DNA of 64,000 nucleotides from Micromonospora echinospora (lineage in GTDB: Bacteria > Actinomycetota > Actinomycetes > Mycobacteriales > Micromonosporaceae). How positions within the stretch are numbered: position 1 is the first letter of the stretch; every line of letters starts with the position of its first letter. The notes beneath the pieces are model-generated. The model worked only from the letters and a program-made list of their open reading frames with translations. It was not told the DNA's origin and made no database searches. Of this stretch, positions 31,805-43,791 are shown one piece after another. Location of the stretch: positions 4,180,001-4,244,000 of the forward strand of contig NZ_JACHJC010000001.1 of the NCBI RefSeq assembly GCF_014203425.1. Reading direction: 5' to 3'. The position numbers and the translations under genes were made by a program.

Positions 31805-34180
<2,376 letters not shown>

Positions 34181-34195
34181 GCGCCACACCGGACC

Positions 34196-34903
34196 TCAGC
34201 GGGACAGGCCGGCCATCCGGGCCGGCGGCGCCGTACCGGGCTCCACCAGGCCGCACTGGTACGCGGCCACCACCGCGTGCGTCCGGTCCCGCATCCCCAG
34301 CTTCGTCAGGACCCGGCTGACGTGGGTCTTGACCGTCGCGTCGCCGAGCACGAGATGCTCGGCGATCTCCCGGTTCGACATCCCGTACGCCATCAGCACC
34401 AGCACCTCCCGTTCCCGCGGCGTGAGCCCGCGCATCTGCACCGGGGTGGGCAGCCCCGGGTCGGGCCGGGCGGCGAGGTCGTCGAGCAGCCGCCGGGCCA
34501 CCGCCGGATCCAGCCACGCCTCCCCGGCGGCCACCGCCCGGATCGCCGACACCAGCTCGGCGGGCGCGGCGTCCTTGAGCACGAAGCCGGAAGCGCCCGC
34601 CCGCAACGCGGCGTGCACCGCCTCGTCCACGTGGTACGTGGTCAGCATGATGATCCGTACCGGCCGCTCCGGGTCGTCGATGAGCTGCTCGTCGGCCATC
34701 AGCTTCGTCGCGGCGAGTCCGTCGGTGCCGGGCATCCGCACGTCCATCAGCACCACGTCCGGGCGCAGCCGGCGACTGATCTCGACGGCCTGCGCCCCGT
34801 CGTCGGCCTCGGCGACGACCTCGATGTCAGGCTCGTTGGTGAGCAGCATCGCGAGTCCCGCCCGTACGAGCGGCTGGTCGTCGGCGAGCAGCACCCGGAT
34901 CAT
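34196..34903 (-). CDS. NarL/FixJ family response regulator
   Basis: A 235-residue regulator: receiver domain (about residues 1-125; IRVLLADDQPLVRAGL, phosphoacceptor Asp in DVVLMDVRMPGTDG) and a C-terminal LuxR HTH (LTPREREVLVLMAYGMSNREIAEHLVLGDATVKTHVSRVLTKLGMRDR). The start at ATG 34903 gives the standard receiver N-terminus. The partner kinase lies just upstream on the same strand. RamR, the activator of the SapB lanthipeptide genes, is of the same class, so control of the neighbouring lanthipeptide locus is a testable inference. Confidence 0.93.
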   Translation of the reverse strand: MIRVLLADDQPLVRAGLAMLLTNEPDIEVVAEADDGAQAVEISRRLRPDVVLMDVRMPGTDGLAATKLMADEQLIDDPERPVRIIMLTTYHVDEAVHAALRAGASGFVLKDAAPAELVSAIRAVAAGEAWLDPAVARRLLDDLAARPDPGLPTPVQMRGLTPREREVLVLMAYGMSNREIAEHLVLGDATVKTHVSRVLTKLGMRDRTHAVVAAYQCGLVEPGTAPPARMAGLSR

Positions 34904-35001
34904 GAAGGCTCCCGTCGTCGGCGGCCGTGACAGTGGCCCCACCACATGATCATCGACGTCGACGCCGTCGGCCAGCCCGATGTCGCACAGCGGACACGCG
35001 T

Positions 35002-36264
35002 TCACCCGACAGCCGGCGCCCCGCCGTCACCGGAGGCCGCCACGAGGTCGCCGCGCTGCGCGACCGGCAGCGTCGCGCTCACCCGGAACCCGCCCTCGGG
35101 ACGCGGCCCGGCGACCAGGCGACCGCCGACGCGCTCCAGCCGTTCGGCGAGGCTGGCCAGCCCGTTGCCGGTGGACAGTCCCGCCGCCGACGCGCCCGGG
35201 TCGCGGTCCGTGCCGTCGTCGTCGACGCGCAGCAACAGCACCCGCTCCTGCCAGCCGAAATGAACAGTCGCGCAGGCCCGCCGGCCGACGTGCTTGAGCG
35301 TGTTCGTCAGGCTCTCCTGCACCGTCCGGTACGCCGCCAGCTCGATACTCGGATCCAGCGGCCGGGCACTGCCGGACACCGACATCGTCACGGTGAGCCC
35401 CGCGCACCGCATCGACGTCAGCAGCACCTCGATGTCGTCCAGCCGCGGCTGCGGGCCAGGCTCACCGTCGGCCGCCGGGCCCGACTCGGCGCGCATCACC
35501 GCCAGCAGCCGGCGCAACTCCGCCATCGCCTGCTGCCCGGCCTGCTGGATGTGCAGCAGCGCCTCCCGGGTCCGCTCCGGATCGGACGCGCTGATCCGCG
35601 CCGCCCCGGCGGCCTGCAGCACCATCACGGTCACCGAGTGGGACACCACGTCGTGCAACTCCGCGGCGATGCGGCGACGCTCCAACGCGACCGCCTCCGC
35701 CCGGGCCACACGCCGCTCCCGTTCCAGCTGGGCCACCCGCCGCCGGTGCCGCCGCACCACCGACCCGGCGGTCCACGCGGCCGCGTAGATGAGCGCGAAC
35801 ATCAGCGCGGTGACCACGAACTCCCCGGCCCGCGCGCCCGGGTTCGGCTCCACCCGGAACGAGTCGAACGCGCTGAGCAGGCTCCGCGCGCACGCCGCCG
35901 CGTACGCCGCCGCCGACACCACCAGCGGCCGCAACGCCGCCACCGTGTACAGGGCCACGATCAGGCCCACCCACGGCCGGTAGTCGTGCACCAGGAACCA
36001 CATCGCCACGCCGTGCACGCACTCGAAGGCGAACACCGTGACCGGCGCCCGGGCCCGCCACCACAGGGCGCCGACCGACAGCACCGCGGCGAGCACCTGC
36101 AGCCACTGCCGGGCCGGGCCGACCGGCTCGCTCTGGATCACCACGGACGACGCCGTGAACAGGTCGAGCAGGCCCAGCACCGGCAGCAGCAGAAGATCGT
36201 GACGCCACCAACTCGCCGCCCGCGCCGGGGCAGACGGCGCCACCGCACCGGTCACCGAGGTCAT
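35002..36264 (-). CDS. NarL-type sensor histidine kinase
   Basis: A 420-residue membrane kinase with four to five N-terminal TM helices (about residues 20-165), a HisKA_3 dimerisation box (ERRRIAAELHDVVSHSVTVMVLQAAGA, phospho-His in ELHD) and a C-terminal HATPase with VQESLTNTLKHV and the G-box GLASLAERLERVGGRLVAGP. It is the cognate partner of the response regulator that starts 98 bp downstream. There is no periplasmic sensor domain, so the stimulus is probably sensed in the membrane. The start is ATG 36264. Confidence 0.9.
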   Translation of the reverse strand: MTSVTGAVAPSAPARAASWWRHDLLLLPVLGLLDLFTASSVVIQSEPVGPARQWLQVLAAVLSVGALWWRARAPVTVFAFECVHGVAMWFLVHDYRPWVGLIVALYTVAALRPLVVSAAAYAAACARSLLSAFDSFRVEPNPGARAGEFVVTALMFALIYAAAWTAGSVVRRHRRRVAQLERERRVARAEAVALERRRIAAELHDVVSHSVTVMVLQAAGAARISASDPERTREALLHIQQAGQQAMAELRRLLAVMRAESGPAADGEPGPQPRLDDIEVLLTSMRCAGLTVTMSVSGSARPLDPSIELAAYRTVQESLTNTLKHVGRRACATVHFGWQERVLLLRVDDDGTDRDPGASAAGLSTGNGLASLAERLERVGGRLVAGPRPEGGFRVSATLPVAQRGDLVAASGDGGAPAVG

Positions 36265-36271
36265 CGGCGGG

Positions 36272-36841
36272 CTAGGAGTTTTCGGCGGGGCAGCCGATCC
36301 CGAACAACCGGCACGTCCAGGACAGCGGAGAACCGTCGTCGTCACCGCCGCCGTCACCGTCGGGCGGCGGCGTGGCCGCGCTCACCCGGTGCGTGGTCAC
36401 CGGCACCGCCGGCCGCCCCGGCTCACCCGCGCGGCCCGCCCCGGCCAGCACCACCGTCGCCACGACGTCGGCCGCGGCGTCCGCGGCCACCCGCCACCGC
36501 CCGTCCGCGTCGTCGGCGAGCATCGCCAGCACCCGCCGCACCGCCGAGGCGTCCGTGCCGTAGCCACCCGGAACCGTCGCGCCGGCGAGGGAAACCATCA
36601 GCAGGTCCGCCTCGTCACGGTGCAGCACCGACACCTCCGCGACAGTGAGTGACCGCGCATCCCCGCCGGCCACACCCACCAGGCGCACCGCGTCACCGGA
36701 CCGGGCCCGGCCCGCACCGACTGTCCTCAGCAGACAACGCCGACCGTCCAGCGGCACCCCACGCGCGACTGTCACCCACCCGGCCGGCCGCTCCGCCTGC
36801 AGGAACACCACCACCGGCGGCGACTGGACCTCGGTTCTCAT
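36272..36841 (-). CDS. Unknown protein with two-cysteine C-terminal tail
   Basis: A 189-residue protein not recognised as any family. Residues 1-130 form an alpha/beta-like domain (VVVFLQAERPAGWVTVARGV, VLHRDEADLLMVSLAGATVPGGYGTD). Residues 150-170 are a Gly/Asp linker and the last 16 residues are SWTCRLFGIGCPAENS. A Ser/Thr-plus-two-Cys tail directly divergent from a lanthipeptide synthetase is suggestive, but it could equally be a disulfide tail. GGAGG lies 7 nt before ATG 36841. The gene ends 7 bp upstream of the kinase start, so it probably heads the kinase/regulator operon. Confidence 0.7.
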   Translation of the reverse strand: MRTEVQSPPVVVFLQAERPAGWVTVARGVPLDGRRCLLRTVGAGRARSGDAVRLVGVAGGDARSLTVAEVSVLHRDEADLLMVSLAGATVPGGYGTDASAVRRVLAMLADDADGRWRVAADAAADVVATVVLAGAGRAGEPGRPAVPVTTHRVSAATPPPDGDGGGDDDGSPLSWTCRLFGIGCPAENS

Positions 36842-36864
36842 CACGGACCTCCACAGAAGGAATT

Positions 36865-36881
36865 GCGGGCGAACAGCCCGC
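36865..36881. promoter_or_regulatory. GCGGGC hairpin in divergent promoter of lan locus
   Basis: GCGGGC-GAACA-GCCCGC is a perfect 6-5-6 inverted repeat 24 nt upstream of the minus-strand start at 36841, in the 285-bp gap shared with the LanKC gene. It may be an operator or part of a leader. The rest of the gap shows no other clear signal or small precursor gene. Confidence 0.35.
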
Positions 36882-37126
36882 GTACGCGAGAAATTCTGGC
36901 CCACACCGGCCCGCCGGACGTCCCCGTACCGGGTGACATCCGGTGTCCACTTCCAGACGGACCCCCGGCGCCCGGCACCGAGCCGGGACGGACCCCGAAC
37001 CTCGCCCCACGGCCGGACGCCAGGACCAGCCGGTGACCACCACGATGGAACCAGTCCGGACGACGGCGGCAACACACCGAACGCCCCGGACACCCTTCCC
37101 AACCCGTCACGGCCACGAGGTTTGCC

Positions 37127-39736
37127 ATGCCCACGCCCGGTGCGTTCCTGATCGCCGACCCGGTCCACGTCGACTCACCGGCGCACGTCGCCGACACGGC
37201 GAGCCGGTTCCCGCTGGCCGACCAGACCCCGCCCGACGGCTGGCGCGTCGCCGAACACGGCGGCTGGATCATGTGGCACCCGCCGCAGGCACAGCTGCCC
37301 CAGCAGGGCTGGAAGGTGCACGTCTCGGTGAACCTCGACGACGCCGCCGACGCCCTCGACCTGGTACGCGAGCACTGCGTCCGCCACCGGGTCGCCTTCA
37401 AGTTCCAGCGCAGCCGCCGCCTCGCCCTGGTCAACAACGAGAAGTACGCCCACCGCGCCGGCAGCGGCAAACTCGCCGCCCTCTACCCGGCCGACGACAC
37501 CGCCCTGCGCCGCATCCTCGACGACCTCGGCGCCCAACTCGCTGGCTACCGCGGCCCGTACGTCCTCAGTGACCTGCGCTGGCACGACGGCCCCCTCTAC
37601 CTGCGCTACGGCGGATTCGCCGAACTCTGGTGCGTCGACGGCGACCAGCCCGTCCCCGCCGTCACACGCCCCGACGGAACCCTCGTCCCCGACCGCCGCG
37701 AACCCGTCTTCACAGTGCCCGACTGGGCACCCGTACCCGACTTCGTCGCCGAACACATCGCCGCCGTCGACGCGCAGACCGACGACGAACCGCCCTACCG
37801 CATCGAGGAAGCCCTGCACCACTCCAACGCCGGCGGCGTCTACCGCGCCACCGACCTGCGCGACGGCCGCACCGTCGTCCTGCGCGAAGCCCGCCCGCAC
37901 GCCGGCCTCGACGGCGCCGGCACCGACGCGCTCACCCGCCTACGCCGCGAGGAGACCATGCTGCGTCGGCTCGCCGGCCTCGACTGCGTCCCACAACTGC
38001 TCGACCGCCTCACCTGGTGGGAACACCAGTTCCTGGTCGAGGAGCACATCGAGGGCGACACCCTCCAGCACCACCTCGCCATGCGGCACCCGCTGATCCA
38101 CCCCGACCCCACCCACCAGGACCTGACCGACTACACCACCTGGGCACTCGACGTCATCGACCAGGTCGAAGCCGCCCTTGCCCAGGTACACGCCAGGGGA
38201 GTGGTCTTCGGCGACCTGCACACCGCCAACGTCATGATCCGCCCCGACGGCCGCGTCGTGCTCGTCGACTTCGAACAGGCGTACCTGACCGACGAGGACT
38301 TCACCCCGTCACTGGGCGACCCCGGCTTCGCCACACCCCGGATCCGCCGCGGCCCCGCCGTCGACACCTACGCGCTCGCCTGCCTACGCCTCGCCGTCTT
38401 CGTACCGCTGACACCACTCGCCGCGCTGTGCGACGAAAAGTTCGACGACCTCCTCACAGTCGCCCGACGCTTCCCACTACCGCCCGGCTACCTCGACCGC
38501 ATCCGCGACGACCTGCACACCGCACTGAACCCGCCCACGTCCGCACCCGACCGCCGCCGCGTCACCCGCTACCCCTGGCCCGCCGACCAACGCCGCCTGA
38601 TCGAATCACTGGCCGCCGGCATCCGCGCCACCGCCACACCACACCGCACCGACCGGCTCTTCCCCGGCGACCCCGGCCAGTTCCCGCACGGCGGCGCCAC
38701 CCTCGCGCACGGCGCCGCCGGCGTCATCTGGGCACTCGTCAACACCGGCGTCGACTACCCCGAACGCGACGAACACCTCGACTGGCTCACCCGCGCCGCC
38801 CGCCGCCTGCCCACCGCCCACCTCGGCCTCTACGACGGCCTGGCCGGCATCGCCGCGCTCCTGGACCGCACGGGACGCCACGACGACGCCGGTGAACTGC
38901 TCGACCGATGTCGCACCGGCCTCCACCACCGCTACGGCCCCGGCCTGCACAGCGGCCTCGCCGGCATCGGACTCGCCCTGCTCCGCCCCGGCAGACCCGC
39001 CCCCGACGACGCCCTGCACATCGGTGACCGACTCGCCCGCACCCTCACCGGCGACACGAAGCAACCCGTGCCCGAACCCGCACGCCCCGGCCTGCTCCAC
39101 GGCTGGTCCGGCCCCGCGATCTTCCTCACCCGCCTCCACGAAGCCACCGGCGACCCCGCCTGGCTACGGGCCGCCCGCACCGCCCTGCGCCGCGACCTGC
39201 AGCACACCGTCCGCGACGACAACGGCAACCTCCACGTACGCGACGGCGCACGACGGCTGTTCTACCTCGACGAAGGCAGCGCCGGCATCGCCGTCGCCGC
39301 CCACACACTGCTCCGCCACGGCGAACGCCAGTGGCTTCGCGACGTCGTCACCACCGTCCGCCGCACCATCGACGTCGAGTTCGTCCTGCTGCCCGGTCTC
39401 TTCCATGGCCGCGCCGGACTGCTCGCCACCACCGCCCTGCTCACCGACGGCCCGCCGCGCACCACCCCGCACGGTCCCGTCGGACTCGTCCGCGACGACG
39501 CGCCCCACCACACCCCGGCCCACCTGGCCCGGCTCGCCTGGCACGCCTACGCCCTCGACGGCCGGCTCGCGTTCCCCGGCGACACCCTGCTGCGCATCTC
39601 CACCGACCTCGCCGCCGGCGGCGCCGGAATCCTGTCCGCGATACACGCCGCGCTGCACCACACCGCAGTGACGCTGCCCTTCCTCGACGCCCCCACCCAC
39701 GTCGCGCCCACCGGCCACCTCCTCGCCGCGAGCTGA
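37127..39736 (+). CDS. lanKC: Class III lanthipeptide synthetase (LanKC)
   Basis: An 869-residue three-domain enzyme. Residues 1-215 match the N-terminal (lyase-region) part of RamC/LanKC (GPYVLSDLRWHDGPLYLRYGGFAELW). Residues 223-510 are a Ser/Thr-kinase-like domain (GDLHTANVM at about 362, DFEQAY at about 380). Residues 520-869 are LanC-like repeats (GLYDGLAG 566, GLHSGLAG 605, GLLHGWSG 654, LDEGSAG 714, GLFHGRAG 757) without the Cys-Cys-His zinc ligands, as expected for class III. It phosphorylates Ser/Thr of the precursor, eliminates phosphate and cyclises to (methyl)lanthionine or labionin. The precursor gene lies 78 bp downstream. Confidence 0.93.
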   Translation: MPTPGAFLIADPVHVDSPAHVADTASRFPLADQTPPDGWRVAEHGGWIMWHPPQAQLPQQGWKVHVSVNLDDAADALDLVREHCVRHRVAFKFQRSRRLALVNNEKYAHRAGSGKLAALYPADDTALRRILDDLGAQLAGYRGPYVLSDLRWHDGPLYLRYGGFAELWCVDGDQPVPAVTRPDGTLVPDRREPVFTVPDWAPVPDFVAEHIAAVDAQTDDEPPYRIEEALHHSNAGGVYRATDLRDGRTVVLREARPHAGLDGAGTDALTRLRREETMLRRLAGLDCVPQLLDRLTWWEHQFLVEEHIEGDTLQHHLAMRHPLIHPDPTHQDLTDYTTWALDVIDQVEAALAQVHARGVVFGDLHTANVMIRPDGRVVLVDFEQAYLTDEDFTPSLGDPGFATPRIRRGPAVDTYALACLRLAVFVPLTPLAALCDEKFDDLLTVARRFPLPPGYLDRIRDDLHTALNPPTSAPDRRRVTRYPWPADQRRLIESLAAGIRATATPHRTDRLFPGDPGQFPHGGATLAHGAAGVIWALVNTGVDYPERDEHLDWLTRAARRLPTAHLGLYDGLAGIAALLDRTGRHDDAGELLDRCRTGLHHRYGPGLHSGLAGIGLALLRPGRPAPDDALHIGDRLARTLTGDTKQPVPEPARPGLLHGWSGPAIFLTRLHEATGDPAWLRAARTALRRDLQHTVRDDNGNLHVRDGARRLFYLDEGSAGIAVAAHTLLRHGERQWLRDVVTTVRRTIDVEFVLLPGLFHGRAGLLATTALLTDGPPRTTPHGPVGLVRDDAPHHTPAHLARLAWHAYALDGRLAFPGDTLLRISTDLAAGGAGILSAIHAALHHTAVTLPFLDAPTHVAPTGHLLAAS

Positions 39737-39759
39737 GACCCGGCCGGCGCCCACAGACC

Positions 39760-39778
39760 CCGTCGGAACCACCGACGG
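39760..39778 (+). promoter_or_regulatory. Hairpin between lanKC and precursor gene
   Basis: CCGTCGG-N5-CCGACGG forms a perfect 7-bp stem 36 nt before the precursor start. It may act as a partial terminator or stabilise a processed 5' end of the precursor mRNA, allowing more precursor than synthetase. Confidence 0.4.
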
Positions 39779-39814
39779 CCAACCCCACCACACCCGAGAA
39801 GGAGGTGAACCCCC

Positions 39815-39919
39815 ATGACGAAGCTCCTCAACCTGCAGGCCATGGCCACGCAGAACGGCACCCGCCACGCGGTCCCGCCGCAGTCCAGCAGCATCAGCAT
39901 CGCCTGCTGCAACGGCTGA
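39815..39919 (+). CDS. lanA: Class III lanthipeptide precursor (SapB/AmfS-like)
   Basis: A 34-residue peptide. The leader starts MTKLLNLQAM, with the LxLQ motif that class III synthetases bind (compare LFDLQ in RamS). The core region ends SSSISIACCNG, giving a Ser-x-Ser-x-x-x-Cys arrangement like the SSLSITTCN end of RamS, with two adjacent cysteines. A near-perfect ribosome site (AAGGAGGTGA) lies 6-7 nt upstream and a 15-bp-stem terminator follows. Only one clear Ser-to-Cys ring cluster is present, so the product may carry one ring where SapB has two. The gene is too short for routine ORF calling. Confidence 0.9.
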   Translation: MTKLLNLQAMATQNGTRHAVPPQSSSISIACCNG

Positions 39920-39971
39920 GACGGCAGTGGCGAACGGGCCACCGGCCCCGGCCACACCTGATCCGCCTGGC

Positions 39972-40004
39972 GACCCGGGCGGGCGGCCACCGCCCGCCCG
40001 GGTC
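39972..40004 (+). terminator. Strong terminator after the precursor gene
   Basis: A perfect 15-bp stem (39972-39986 with 39990-40004; arm GACCCGGGCGGGCGG) and a 3-nt loop, 52 nt after the lanA stop. It separates the synthetase/precursor unit from the MFS gene at 40072. Confidence 0.75.
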
Positions 40005-40071
40005 CGTCGTCAACCCGCCCCACAGCCGGTGGAGCCGACCTCCCGCCCGCCACCACGCCCACGGAGCCCTC

Positions 40072-41337
40072 ATGCCGCCCACCGGCCTGCGACACAACCG
40101 CGACTTCCTCCTCATCACCGTCGCCCGCACCGCGTCGAAACTCGGCACCCAGGTCACCGCCGTCGCCACGCCGCTCCTCGTGCTGCTGACCACCGGCTCC
40201 GCCACCGACGCCGGCCTCGTCGCCTTCGCCGAAGGAATCGCCCTGGTCCTCGTACTCCTGCCCGCCGGCCTGCTCGCCGACCGCCGCGACCGGCGCATCC
40301 TCATGCTCTGCTGCGACGGCGGCGCGCTGCTCGCCGTCGCCGGCGTCACAGTGCTCGCCCTCGTCGGACACGCGCCAGTCCTGCTGATCGCCGTCCTCGC
40401 CGCCGCCACCGCCGGTCTCGGCGCCGCCCTGCAACCCGCCGCCGCGGCGGCCACCCGCGCCGTCGTCCCGGCACGGGACCTGCGTACGGCCACCGTGTTC
40501 AACGAAACCCGCAACGGCGTCGTACACCTGGCCGGCCCGCCGCTCGGCGGCTTCCTGTTCGGCCTCGCCCCGGCGCTGCCGTTCCTCGTCGACGCGATCT
40601 CGTACGCCGTCTCCCTGGTCGCTGTGGCCCTGCTACGCGGCCCGCTCGGCCGGTCCCTGACCACGCCGGGGGAGTCCCTGCCCCAGCAGGCCGTCGCCGG
40701 GGTCCGGTTCCTGTGGCGACAACCGTCGCTACGGTTCACGCTGCTCTGCGGCGCCGTCCTGAACTTCGCGTTCGCAGGCGTCCTGCTGGCGATCATCGTC
40801 GTGCCCGTCCGCAACGGCGCCTCCGGACTGTCCGCCGGTACCGTCATGGCATGCGTCGGGCTCGGCGCCGTCGCCGGATCACTCGTCGCGTCCTGGCTGA
40901 CCGCCCGGGTACCCACCCGCTGGCTGATCCTCGCTGTCGTCTGGGCCTGCGCTGTGCTGACCGCCGCGATGGCCACCACCGACAACGGACTGATCCTGGG
41001 CGCGCTGGCCGGCGCCTCCGTCCTGGTCGTACCCGCCGCGAACATCAGCATGCTGACTCTCCAGACCCTGCTGACCCCCGGCGACCTGCAGGGGAGAGCG
41101 AACGCCGCGACCAGCTTCATCGCGCTGATCGTGGCGCCGTTCGGCCCGGCGCTGTCCGGCCTGCTGATCGACCGCGTACCGGCGCCGATGGTGTTCGGCA
41201 GCTTCGCGGCCGTCATGCTGACGCTCGCCCTGGGCGCGGCCGTCGCACCCGCCGTGCGCGCAATGCCCGACCTGCGCGCCGTCGAGGACGTCCCGGAGCC
41301 CGGCGAGGCCGAGCGCCGCGACCCGCAGCCGGTCTGA
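40072..41337 (+). CDS. MFS exporter of the lanthipeptide locus
   Basis: A 421-residue 12-TM carrier of the MFS_3/EntS-like drug-efflux type: FLLITVARTASKLGTQVTAVATPLLVL at TM1, motif A AGLLADRRDRRILML between TM2 and TM3, and FNETRNGVVHLAGPPLGGFLFG at TM5. ATG 40072 has ACGGAG upstream. Its position right after the precursor suggests peptide or lantibiotic export; SapB-type clusters normally use an ABC pair, so this is a non-standard arrangement and the role is inferred from context only. Confidence 0.88.
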   Translation: MPPTGLRHNRDFLLITVARTASKLGTQVTAVATPLLVLLTTGSATDAGLVAFAEGIALVLVLLPAGLLADRRDRRILMLCCDGGALLAVAGVTVLALVGHAPVLLIAVLAAATAGLGAALQPAAAAATRAVVPARDLRTATVFNETRNGVVHLAGPPLGGFLFGLAPALPFLVDAISYAVSLVAVALLRGPLGRSLTTPGESLPQQAVAGVRFLWRQPSLRFTLLCGAVLNFAFAGVLLAIIVVPVRNGASGLSAGTVMACVGLGAVAGSLVASWLTARVPTRWLILAVVWACAVLTAAMATTDNGLILGALAGASVLVVPAANISMLTLQTLLTPGDLQGRANAATSFIALIVAPFGPALSGLLIDRVPAPMVFGSFAAVMLTLALGAAVAPAVRAMPDLRAVEDVPEPGEAERRDPQPV

Positions 41338-42264: not shown

Positions 42265-42774
42265 CACACTCAGGCGGGGCCTCCCCGGGCATCCACGCGA
42301 GGCGACTGACCGACCTTCCGGGGCCTGGAGGTCCAATCGGTCACCCCGTCGCACCGCCGAGCGCGGCATCAAGCTCGTCATCCACCGCGCGGTCCGGCTG
42401 GTTCGGACGCACCCAGGCCGCGATGCCGCTGGCGCTTGACCGCGAGCACCGATCGCCCGGGCACCCCCGACCACTAATCCCCGCCGACACCGACCTCCGC
42501 GCCGCCCGGATCCCACCATCCGGCGATCATGAGGTTGGCGGGGACAACTTGGGCAGCATTCGCGCTCAACCTCATGATCACCGGAGCAGCGAGGGTGCCA
42601 GCCCTTTCGCCTGCCCTCCTGGTATCGACCGAGTGCCGACGGGTGTGACTACCGCCAGTTCGCCGATGTGGCCGCATCGGAGCGCCCGGGATGCCGCCAC
42701 CCCGGCGAAGTGGAGTTGATCATCGCTTGATCGACTGCACCCCCTGGACTGACCTCCTGGCGGGAACGCGAGAA
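42265..42774. other. Intergenic region between dif-like site and recombinase
   Basis: The gap from 42213 to 42792 carries no convincing gene. It contains the dif-like site, the inverted repeat at 42525-42579 and the palindromic promoter at 42775-42800. The remainder has no coding composition and no recognised RNA. Confidence 0.5.
42525..42579. repeat. GATCATGAGGTTG inverted-repeat element, copy 2
   Basis: GATCATGAGGTTG (42525-42537) pairs perfectly with CAACCTCATGATC (42567-42579) across a 29-nt loop, exactly the loop length of copy 1 at 6105. The arms differ by one compensated base pair (A/T to G/C), which indicates selection for the hairpin. Confidence 0.75.
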
Positions 42775-42800
42775 TCATGCATAATATCCCTTATGCATGA
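42775..42800 (+). promoter_or_regulatory. Palindromic leaderless promoter of the recombinase
   Basis: TCATGCATAA (42775-42784), six bases, then TTATGCATGA (42791-42800) form a perfect 10-bp inverted repeat. CATAAT (42780-42785) is a good -10 box, placing the start site on or next to ATG 42793, so the operator covers -10 box and start codon. Autoregulation by the recombinase or an unknown repressor is plausible. Confidence 0.6.
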
Positions 42801-43791
42801 CAAACCGGACGAAACGGTAGCGACTCTGATCGAGGAGTTCCTTACTGCCCGGGCCACCCGTAAGCCCTCCCCCCACACCCTGGCCGCCTACCGGCGGGAC
42901 CTGACCACAGTGGCCGAACTGGTCGCCGCCGACGGTGACACCACTCCCCTCCCCCTGGACCGGCTGGCGATCGGCACCCTCTCCCCCAGGGTGATGCGCG
43001 CGGCGTTCGCGCGGTTCGCCGCTCCCCGCGCCGCCGCGTCGGTCCATCGTGCCTGGTCGACGTGGAACAGCTTCTTCACTTTCCTGGTGGCGGAGGGCGT
43101 CGTACCGGGCAATCCGATGCCGGCGGTGGGGCGACCGCGTACGCCGCTCCCCCGGCCCAAGCCGCTCCGGGGAGAGGACACCCCGGAGGAGCTGCTGGCG
43201 GCGGTGGCGCGCGCGGAGGGCCGGCAGCGTGATCCGTGGCCGGAGCGGGACCTGGCGGTGCTGGCGCTGGCGTTGTGCGCGGGGTTGCGGCTGTCGGAGC
43301 TGCTGGCGCTGCGGGTGTCGTCGGTGACGGGGCGCGACGGCGAGCGGCGGGTGGACGTGGCGGGCAAGGGCGGGCGGCCGCGTACGGTCCCGATCGAGGA
43401 CGCCGTGGACCGGGTGCTGACGGGCTATCTGGACAGCCGGCGGTACCGGTTCGGGTCGCGCAATGTGCGCCCGGACTCGCCGTTTCTGGTGGACCGTCAG
43501 GGTGAGGCGTTGCGGCGGGGCGGCCTCCAGTACCTCGTGGAGTCGTGTTACCGGCGTGCGGGCATCGGTGACCGGGTGCCGCGGGGCGCGCGGTTGCACG
43601 CGTTGCGGCACACGTTCGCGACGCGGTTGGCGGAGGACGGGGCGAGCGCGGCGGAGATCATGCGGTTGCTGGGGCATGCGTCGTTGGCGTCGTCGCAGAC
43701 GTACATCGAGGTGACGGCGGGTCAGCAGCGGGCGGCGGTGGCGGCGAACCGCACCAACCGGGCGTTGTCGGGGTTGACGCCGCCGCGGTGA
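42793..43791 (+). CDS. Xer-like tyrosine recombinase beside dif-like site
   Basis: A 332-residue enzyme: N-terminal core-binding domain (about residues 8-110; TLIEEFLTARATRKPSPHTLAAYRRDL) and a catalytic domain with R in LCAGLRLSELLAL, K in VAGKGGRPRTVP, HxxR in RLHALRHTFATRLAED, H in LLGHASLASSQTYIEVT and the nucleophilic Tyr. All six catalytic positions are present. It resembles XerC/XerD and integrases equally. ATG 42793 sits in the palindromic promoter. Adjacency to a dif-like site recalls single-recombinase XerS and XerH systems. It is not flanked by obvious attachment duplications. Confidence 0.88.
   Translation: MHDKPDETVATLIEEFLTARATRKPSPHTLAAYRRDLTTVAELVAADGDTTPLPLDRLAIGTLSPRVMRAAFARFAAPRAAASVHRAWSTWNSFFTFLVAEGVVPGNPMPAVGRPRTPLPRPKPLRGEDTPEELLAAVARAEGRQRDPWPERDLAVLALALCAGLRLSELLALRVSSVTGRDGERRVDVAGKGGRPRTVPIEDAVDRVLTGYLDSRRYRFGSRNVRPDSPFLVDRQGEALRRGGLQYLVESCYRRAGIGDRVPRGARLHALRHTFATRLAEDGASAAEIMRLLGHASLASSQTYIEVTAGQQRAAVAANRTNRALSGLTPPR

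What the first reader, a model, noticed from the sequence alone, without database searches (positions are those of the whole stretch)
36272..41337. Class III lanthipeptide locus with an MFS exporter instead of the ABC pair
Seen: an 869-residue LanKC (kinase-like and LanC-like domains without zinc ligands), a 34-residue precursor with an LLNLQ leader and SSSISIACCNG core, strong ribosome site and terminator, then an MFS carrier. Known: SapB/AmfS clusters pair LanKC with a RamS-like precursor, an ABC transporter and a NarL-type regulator. Inference: this is a divergent SapB-type system in which an MFS protein exports the product. The core has one Ser-x-Ser cluster and two adjacent Cys, unlike the two-ring SapB core, so its product may have a new ring pattern.
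Basis: partly seen in the sequence, partly recalled or inferred. Interest (0 to 1): 0.85.

Follow-up and report, generated by a model that had tools for sequence, protein, structure and literature searches.

The report
Class III lanthipeptide cluster, MFS exporter
A soil bacterium (Micromonospora) carries a small gene cassette that very probably makes a short sulfur-bridged peptide and exports it with a different kind of pump from the usual one; the cassette also holds an uncharacterised protein that, in the genomes searched, was seen only beside such clusters.

Summary
The 869-aa protein is a class III lanthionine synthetase (NF038151, 939 bits, cut-off 575). The 34-aa peptide is a real gene: its 105 nt are identical in genomes of four Micromonospora species while LanKC and MFS differ by 5-9%. 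The MFS gene starts at 40072. Within 160 Micromonospora genomes the precursor, the LanKC subtype and the MFS ortholog occur in the same six; Dactylosporangium has it too. Two Actinoplanes-type loci carry the same P189-HK-RR module and a related LanKC with an ABC pair instead, the best evidence that the MFS protein took over export. It is not a divergent SapB: the precursor fails the SapB/RamS cut-offs, lacks two SxxSx3C motifs, and the LanKC groups with radical-SAM-associated clusters. The core is SS(S/T)xSxxC plus a second Cys one or two residues on, so the ring pattern is open. P189 was seen only at these loci; its model resembles a degenerate trypsin fold (inconclusive) with an invariant two-Cys tail. 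New variant of a known kind; product, export and function are untested.

The parts
37127..39736 (+). LanKC, class III lanthionine synthetase (lyase, kinase and cyclase domains), 869 aa
   Evidence: NF038151 939.1 bits vs cut-off 575; Pfam domains; eight of eight ThurKC lyase residues conserved
39815..39919 (+). Precursor peptide gene, 34 aa (leader with LLNLQ, core SSSISIACCNG)
   Evidence: 105/105 nt identical in 4 genomes
39799..39808 (+). Ribosome binding site AAGGAGGTGA of the precursor
   Evidence: inside the identical block 39798-39933
39972..40004 (+). Perfect 15-bp G+C-rich hairpin between precursor and MFS, no T run; likely attenuator, terminator or RNA stabiliser
   Evidence: fold z -2.71 for 39920-40071; strong hairpins predicted in 7 of 7 MFS cassettes
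40072..41337 (+). MFS transporter, 421 aa, tied to the cassette; proposed exporter
   Evidence: MFS_1 95.7 bits, MFS_3 82.3; orthologs at E<=1e-60 in the six cassette genomes and no other of 160
36272..36841 (-). P189: 189-aa protein of unknown function, C-tail PL(S/T)WxCR..GIGCP
   Evidence: fold
35002..36264 (-). Sensor histidine kinase (HisKA_3, DUF7134 membrane part), 420 aa
34196..35005 (-). NarL/LuxR-type response regulator, 269 aa as called (domain match from about residue 35)

Best explanation
A self-contained class III lanthipeptide cassette. Shown: a class III LanKC, a conserved adjacent precursor, an MFS transporter tied to the cassette, and a divergent operon-like set of P189, histidine kinase and response regulator, recurring as a unit. 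Inferred: LanKC binds the leader helix through the conserved Gln, phosphorylates and eliminates Ser (Thr in some relatives) in SS(S/T)xSxxC, and closes at least one ring on the first Cys (labionin or lanthionine), with the second Cys available for another ring. A protease encoded elsewhere removes the leader. The MFS protein exports the product in place of the ABC pair of related clusters. The kinase and regulator pair controls the cassette, possibly by sensing the product; P189 assists sensing or maturation. The likely role is an extracellular signal or surface peptide rather than a SapB homologue.
For: LanKC equivalog. Lyase residues K63, H65, K92, K106, K115, D149, R160, R191 match ThurKC K65, H67, K94, K108, K117, D152, R163, R191; the leader-Gln contacts Y243, E258, R112 map to Y239, E254, R110, and the Gln is kept in 6 of 6 distinct precursors, at residue 8 in five. 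The precursor co-occurs with the LanKC subtype and the MFS ortholog in the same 6 of 160 genomes, and in G261. Transporter tally over 29 fetched LanKC loci: MFS ortholog 7, RamAB-type ABC pair 16, single ABC 1, none by these queries 5, MFS ortholog with ABC pair 0 (the queries come from the window, L055 and L070, which match themselves). P189-HK-RR occurs with an ABC pair in two loci, L070 and L102. MFS-type LanKCs form one group, 100/100. Candidate leader proteases in this genome: one prolyl oligopeptidase, five M16 and five M1 matches over the cut-off. An MFS exporter is described for another RiPP, bottromycin (PMC7113386, passages).
Against: No product, transcript or transport datum. The transporter's direction and substrate are inferred from linkage; it has sub-cut-off similarity to drug-efflux MFS families and could give immunity instead. 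Four of the seven MFS cassettes are syntenic in close relatives, so they are not independent. The 29 loci were chosen mainly by LanKC score, not at random, and scored by orthology. Of the five 'none' loci, L051 and L071 carry an unrelated MFS_1 protein near by and L007 and L050 DrrA-type ABC genes, so an MFS gene near a LanKC is not by itself rare. The precursor is below the cut-off of every family it matches (best NF038159, 24.0 vs 30). The sensing role rests only on the adjacent kinase.
Confidence: 0.72

Rival explanations
1. The MFS protein is an immunity or resistance pump, or an exporter of something else, and the lanthipeptide leaves by a transporter encoded elsewhere.
For: Its NCBIfam matches are to efflux families (TIGR00900 149 bits, EntS 80, Tap 67, all below cut-off). 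A second transporter elsewhere in the genome was not sought; the other LanKC locus has an ABC-2-type pair.
Against: Related loci with the same regulatory module have an ABC pair and no MFS ortholog; 0 of 29 loci have both.
Confidence: 0.2
2. A true SapB/AmfS-type morphogen that has drifted in sequence.
For: Weak RamS (21.3 bits) and SapB_AmfS (16.9 bits) matches; LanKC plus precursor plus NarL-type regulator.
Against: Below both cut-offs; no double SxxSx3C; LanKC in another group; two other cassette genomes, G064 and G156, carry a separate SapB-like locus as well.
Confidence: 0.08
3. P189 is itself a LanKC substrate: its PL(S/T)WxCR..GIGCP tail is a second, protein-borne core.
For: Tail with two Cys and an invariant Ser/Thr position in the P189 proteins aligned, across Micromonospora, Dactylosporangium and Actinoplanes names.
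Against: No LxLQ motif in the window's P189; the gene lies with the regulators, not with the precursor.
Confidence: 0.05
4. Chance ORF: the 34-aa frame is not a gene and the true precursor lies elsewhere.
For: It is below every curated precursor cut-off it was scored against.
Against: Strong ribosome site, identity at DNA level in four genomes, homologous tandem copies at the same place in G064 and G156 and one copy in G261.
Confidence: 0.01

Closest known systems
SapB / AmfS clusters (RamC-RamS-RamAB-RamR; gene names recalled)
   Same: Class III LanKC next to a short precursor with an LxLQ leader; NarL-type response regulator
   Different: MFS instead of the ABC pair; own histidine kinase and P189; one SxxSx2C plus an extra Cys instead of two SxxSx3C; no acidic residue in this precursor; LanKC in a different group
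Actinoplanes-type LanKC loci L070 (G206) and L102 (G193)
   Same: P189-type protein, HK (56% to ours) and RR (about 71%), related LanKC (46%); L102 leader MAKILNLQAM close to ours MTKLLNLQAM
   Different: ABC pair, radical SAM gene, core beginning with Cys, no SxxSx(2-5)C motif in the L102 precursor
Andalusicin / ThurKC (class III, Bacillus)
   Same: Lyase, leader-binding and metal-independent cyclase residues; spacing from Met to Gln in the leader
   Different: Firmicute precursors with 11 dehydroamino acids and a methyltransferase (PMC10604976, sections 6, 9, 11, 12 read)
Bottromycin (BotT/BtmA)
   Same: An actinobacterial RiPP cluster with an MFS exporter
   Different: Not a lanthipeptide (PMC7113386, passages read)

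Membership tests
Class III lanthipeptide system | LanKC passing the class III equivalog | tested here: met
   939.1 bits against 575; class IV model 348 against 650
Class III lanthipeptide system | Cyclase domain lacking the zinc ligands | tested here: met
   D715, F759, H760 at the ligand positions; both Cys replaced, His kept
Class III lanthipeptide system | Adjacent precursor with LxLQ leader and Ser/Cys core | tested here: met
   below the cut-off of the family models
Class III lanthipeptide system | Thioether-bridged product | not testable with these tools
   needs mass spectrometry
SapB/AmfS family | Precursor over the curated cut-off (NF033212, PF19402) | tested here: not met
   16.9 vs 25 and 21.3 vs 24.3 bits
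SapB/AmfS family | Two tandem SxxSxxxC motifs | tested here: not met
   one SxxSxxC
SapB/AmfS family | ABC transporter pair in the cluster | tested here: not met
   no ABC-pair match in window 26001-52000
Labionin-containing peptides | SxxSx(2-5)C motif | tested here: met
   SSISIAC in ours; 6 of 6 distinct precursors
Labionin-containing peptides | Labionin in the product | not testable with these tools
   needs MS/MS or hydrolysis
Lipolanthine | LanD-type flavoprotein in the cluster (feature recalled) | tested here: not met
   no PF02441 among the 12 window proteins scanned
Trypsin-like fold (P189) | Chymotrypsin-like fold | tested here: inconclusive

The most novel reading that the evidence does not exclude
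P189 is a new, dedicated component of a class III lanthipeptide branch: a degenerate trypsin-like protein, probably cytosolic, whose PL(S/T)WxCR..GIGCP tail is read or modified by the pathway, so that maturation of the peptide is reported to the adjacent histidine kinase, while the MFS pump replaces ABC export for a very short, doubly crosslinked peptide.
Probability: 0.12. Interest if true: 0.8.

Novelty: new variant of a known kind. Interest (0 to 1): 0.5.

Why it matters
Export and control of class III lanthipeptides are little studied. A group in which the exporter changed type while the regulatory module stayed the same makes transporter choice directly testable, and gives a compact three-gene expression target (LanKC, precursor, MFS). 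The SxxSxxC plus second-Cys core is a clear test of how a metal-independent cyclase treats two close cysteines. P189 is a new marker protein for this branch.

Tried and rejected
Rejected: that the MFS gene is a chance neighbour; that the genome's second LanKC locus accounts for the product (lipolanthine-like setting with its own candidate precursor and an ABC-2-type pair); that the UvrA-like ABC ATPase at 31805-34180 is the exporter (NCBIfam UvrA; no match shown near the G064, G156 or G261 cassettes).

Led nowhere: PDB sequence search with the MFS protein, no match. Print: the precursor strings, 0 papers; lanthipeptide + 'MFS transporter' + 'class III', 1 unrelated paper by its listing; at least three of class III lanthi / LanKC / MFS / precursor, 20 papers, in two of which 'MFS' occurs, neither on class III export by title; lanthipeptide + 'major facilitator superfamily', 40 papers, of which I saw the 25 listed and read passages of one. 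The library is open-access only, so absence there is weak. One print trace: a 7,750-base class III region with 'No match found' in M. provocatoris (PMC8146288, passages), a species with a 77% LanKC; that it is this cassette is likely but not shown.

Weak rows dropped: 27 of 354 genomes match P189 at E<=0.01; I count the nine at E<=1.2e-19 and treat the other 18 (3.4e-5 to 0.00974) as chance without following them. In one search, 159 of 160 genomes have some match at E<=10; I count the six at E<=3.5e-17. The first tree had three LanKC rows (L049, L054, L067) translated on the wrong strand; one search replaces it.

Full report
Setting. The window lies in a 7.13-Mb single-contig genome. Its LanKC is 94% identical to one in M. 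chalcea DSM 43026 and 87-88% to those of M. marina and M. tulbaghiae, and 98% to several proteins named M. chalcea, so the genome is a Micromonospora.

The parts. LanKC, 37127-39736, is class III by the NCBI equivalog model. Mapped on ThurKC (PMC10604976, sections 6, 9, 11 and 12 read) by hand through the printed alignment, eight of eight lyase residues are kept, as are the three residues that hold the leader Gln (letters checked). The cyclase has D715, F759 and H760 where NisC has Cys284, Cys330 and His331. The precursor, 39815-39919, begins M-T-K-L-L-N-L-Q; the distance from Met to Gln equals that described for the ThurA1 leader (Met-22 to Gln-15). The MFS gene begins at 40072. On the other strand lie P189 (36272-36841), a histidine kinase (35002-36264) and a NarL/LuxR response regulator (34196-35005).

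The cassette is a unit. In the M. chalcea, M. tulbaghiae and M. marina genomes (L040-L042; L040 is cut by a contig end inside P189) it sits among the same neighbours; in G064, G156 and G261 it appears without the tested neighbours of the window. P189 is present in G156 too, though the first tblastn missed it. G064 and G156 each carry two tandem precursors; G261 has one. Names: the G064 contig length equals that of a contig with an M. nigra LanKC; the G261 P189 is letter for letter the Dactylosporangium aurantiacum protein P0013, and the G206 one the Actinoplanes philippinensis protein P0014; G193 bears the same genus label as G206. Across 160 Micromonospora genomes, LanKC matches at E<=1e-50 occur in 89, but the close subtype (64% or more; next 47-50%) in 6; the precursor (E<=3.5e-17) in the same 6; the MFS ortholog (E<=1e-60) in the same 6. 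In one search (2,634 proteins at E<=1e-100 among 7,990 scored, best 120 listed) identities fall from 65% (full length; one 535-aa fragment at 66%) to at most 51%.

The precursor is under unusual constraint. Its 105 nt are the same in the window, L040, L041 and L042, and a block of 136 nt, 39798-39933, is identical in all four, while LanKC is 90.7-94.6% and MFS 91.6-95.4% identical to the window at DNA level. Of 467 windows of 105 nt, only the two over the precursor show no difference, against L041 as against L042; the means are 9.7 and 10.5 differences. Selection on the RNA or recent exchange could explain this; I could not tell which.

The core. Six distinct precursors share SS(S/T)xSxxC and a second Cys one or two residues on; all six match SxxSx2C; five have no Asp or Glu and the sixth has one. 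Two SapB-like Micromonospora precursors checked have two SxxSx3C motifs and four acidic residues each. The motif SxxSx(2-5)C is described for labionin or lanthionine formation (PMC11251773 and PMC8960859, passages; PMC7268733, passages, gives Sx2Sx3C).

Transporter swap. Among 29 fetched LanKC loci (window included; 17-19 kb stretches, L040 10.9 kb; chosen mainly by LanKC score), the MFS ortholog is found in 7, an ABC pair in 16, a single ABC protein in 1 (L047), neither by these queries in 5 (L007, L050, L051, L053, L071), and both in none (E<=1e-10 and at least half of the query). L051 and L071 have an unrelated MFS_1 protein near by; L007 has a DrrA-like ATPase and ABC-2 permease and L050 a DrrA-like ATPase. 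L070 and L102 have a P189-type protein, HK and RR next to an ABC pair, a radical SAM gene and a LanKC. In the corrected LanKC tree (29 rows) the MFS loci form one group (100/100); with L071 (100/99) and then L047, L067, L070 and L102 they make one side of a 100/98 branch, apart from the SapB-like loci. The root is a midpoint and several branches, L071 and L047 among them, are long. Radical SAM relatives are found in L047, L067, L070, L071 and L102 but in none of the seven MFS loci, so the MFS branch plausibly lost both that gene and the ABC pair; this is inference.

Leader removal. No protease family is among the 12 window proteins scanned. Most characterized class III clusters lack a protease gene (PMC8960859, passages). 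This genome has one prolyl oligopeptidase, five M16 and five M1 matches. A Pro three residues before the first core Ser is invariant in the five precursors of alignment A1, and the G261 precursor has it by eye. Whether it guides cleavage is a guess.

Second LanKC. The genome's other full-length LanKC (C1:4414448, 44%) lies with a flavoprotein, an SfLAP protein, two phosphopantetheine carriers, an ABC-2-type pair and a candidate precursor with a C-terminal Cys 4.7 kb downstream: a lipolanthine-like setting, by recall of that family. I do not think it explains this cassette.

Verdict. A real class III cassette with an MFS exporter by inference, in a branch distinct from SapB: a new variant of a known kind.

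Noticed in passing
G000:C1:4414448-4416985 (L007:9368-11974), L007:4672-6419 and L007:16698-16790: Second LanKC of the same genome, with flavoprotein, SfLAP protein, two acyl-carrier-like proteins, an ABC-2-type pair and a candidate precursor ending in Cys; lipolanthine-like.
   Followed up: partly
L070:1631-11620 and L102:7379-17292: Actinoplanes-type loci: P189-type protein, HK, RR, ABC pair, LanKC and radical SAM gene, precursors whose core starts at Cys; the radical SAM role is open.
   Followed up: partly
window 39798-39933: 136 nt from the ribosome site to 14 nt past the precursor stop are identical in four genomes although LanKC and MFS differ by 5-9%; more constraint than the peptide alone needs.
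   Followed up: partly
L071:3970-10503: Two LanKC genes in tandem with a radical SAM gene and a candidate precursor near their junction; nearest outgroup to the MFS group in the tree.
   Followed up: partly
L053:10097-10609 and L068:6810-7467: LanKC loci with three and four different candidate precursors in tandem.
   Followed up: no
L044:7904-10957: The G156 LanKC frame is 1017 aa, with extra sequence and a repeated tail (VPAGAGERTVSAGAGERT...).
   Followed up: no
window 42691-43791: XerC/D-like tyrosine recombinase downstream of the cassette, kept in the four syntenic genomes but not matched at the other cassettes; no element ends sought.
   Followed up: no
window 31805-34180: 791-aa UvrA-like protein, below the NCBIfam UvrA cut-off (677.5 vs 729.8 bits).
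   Followed up: no
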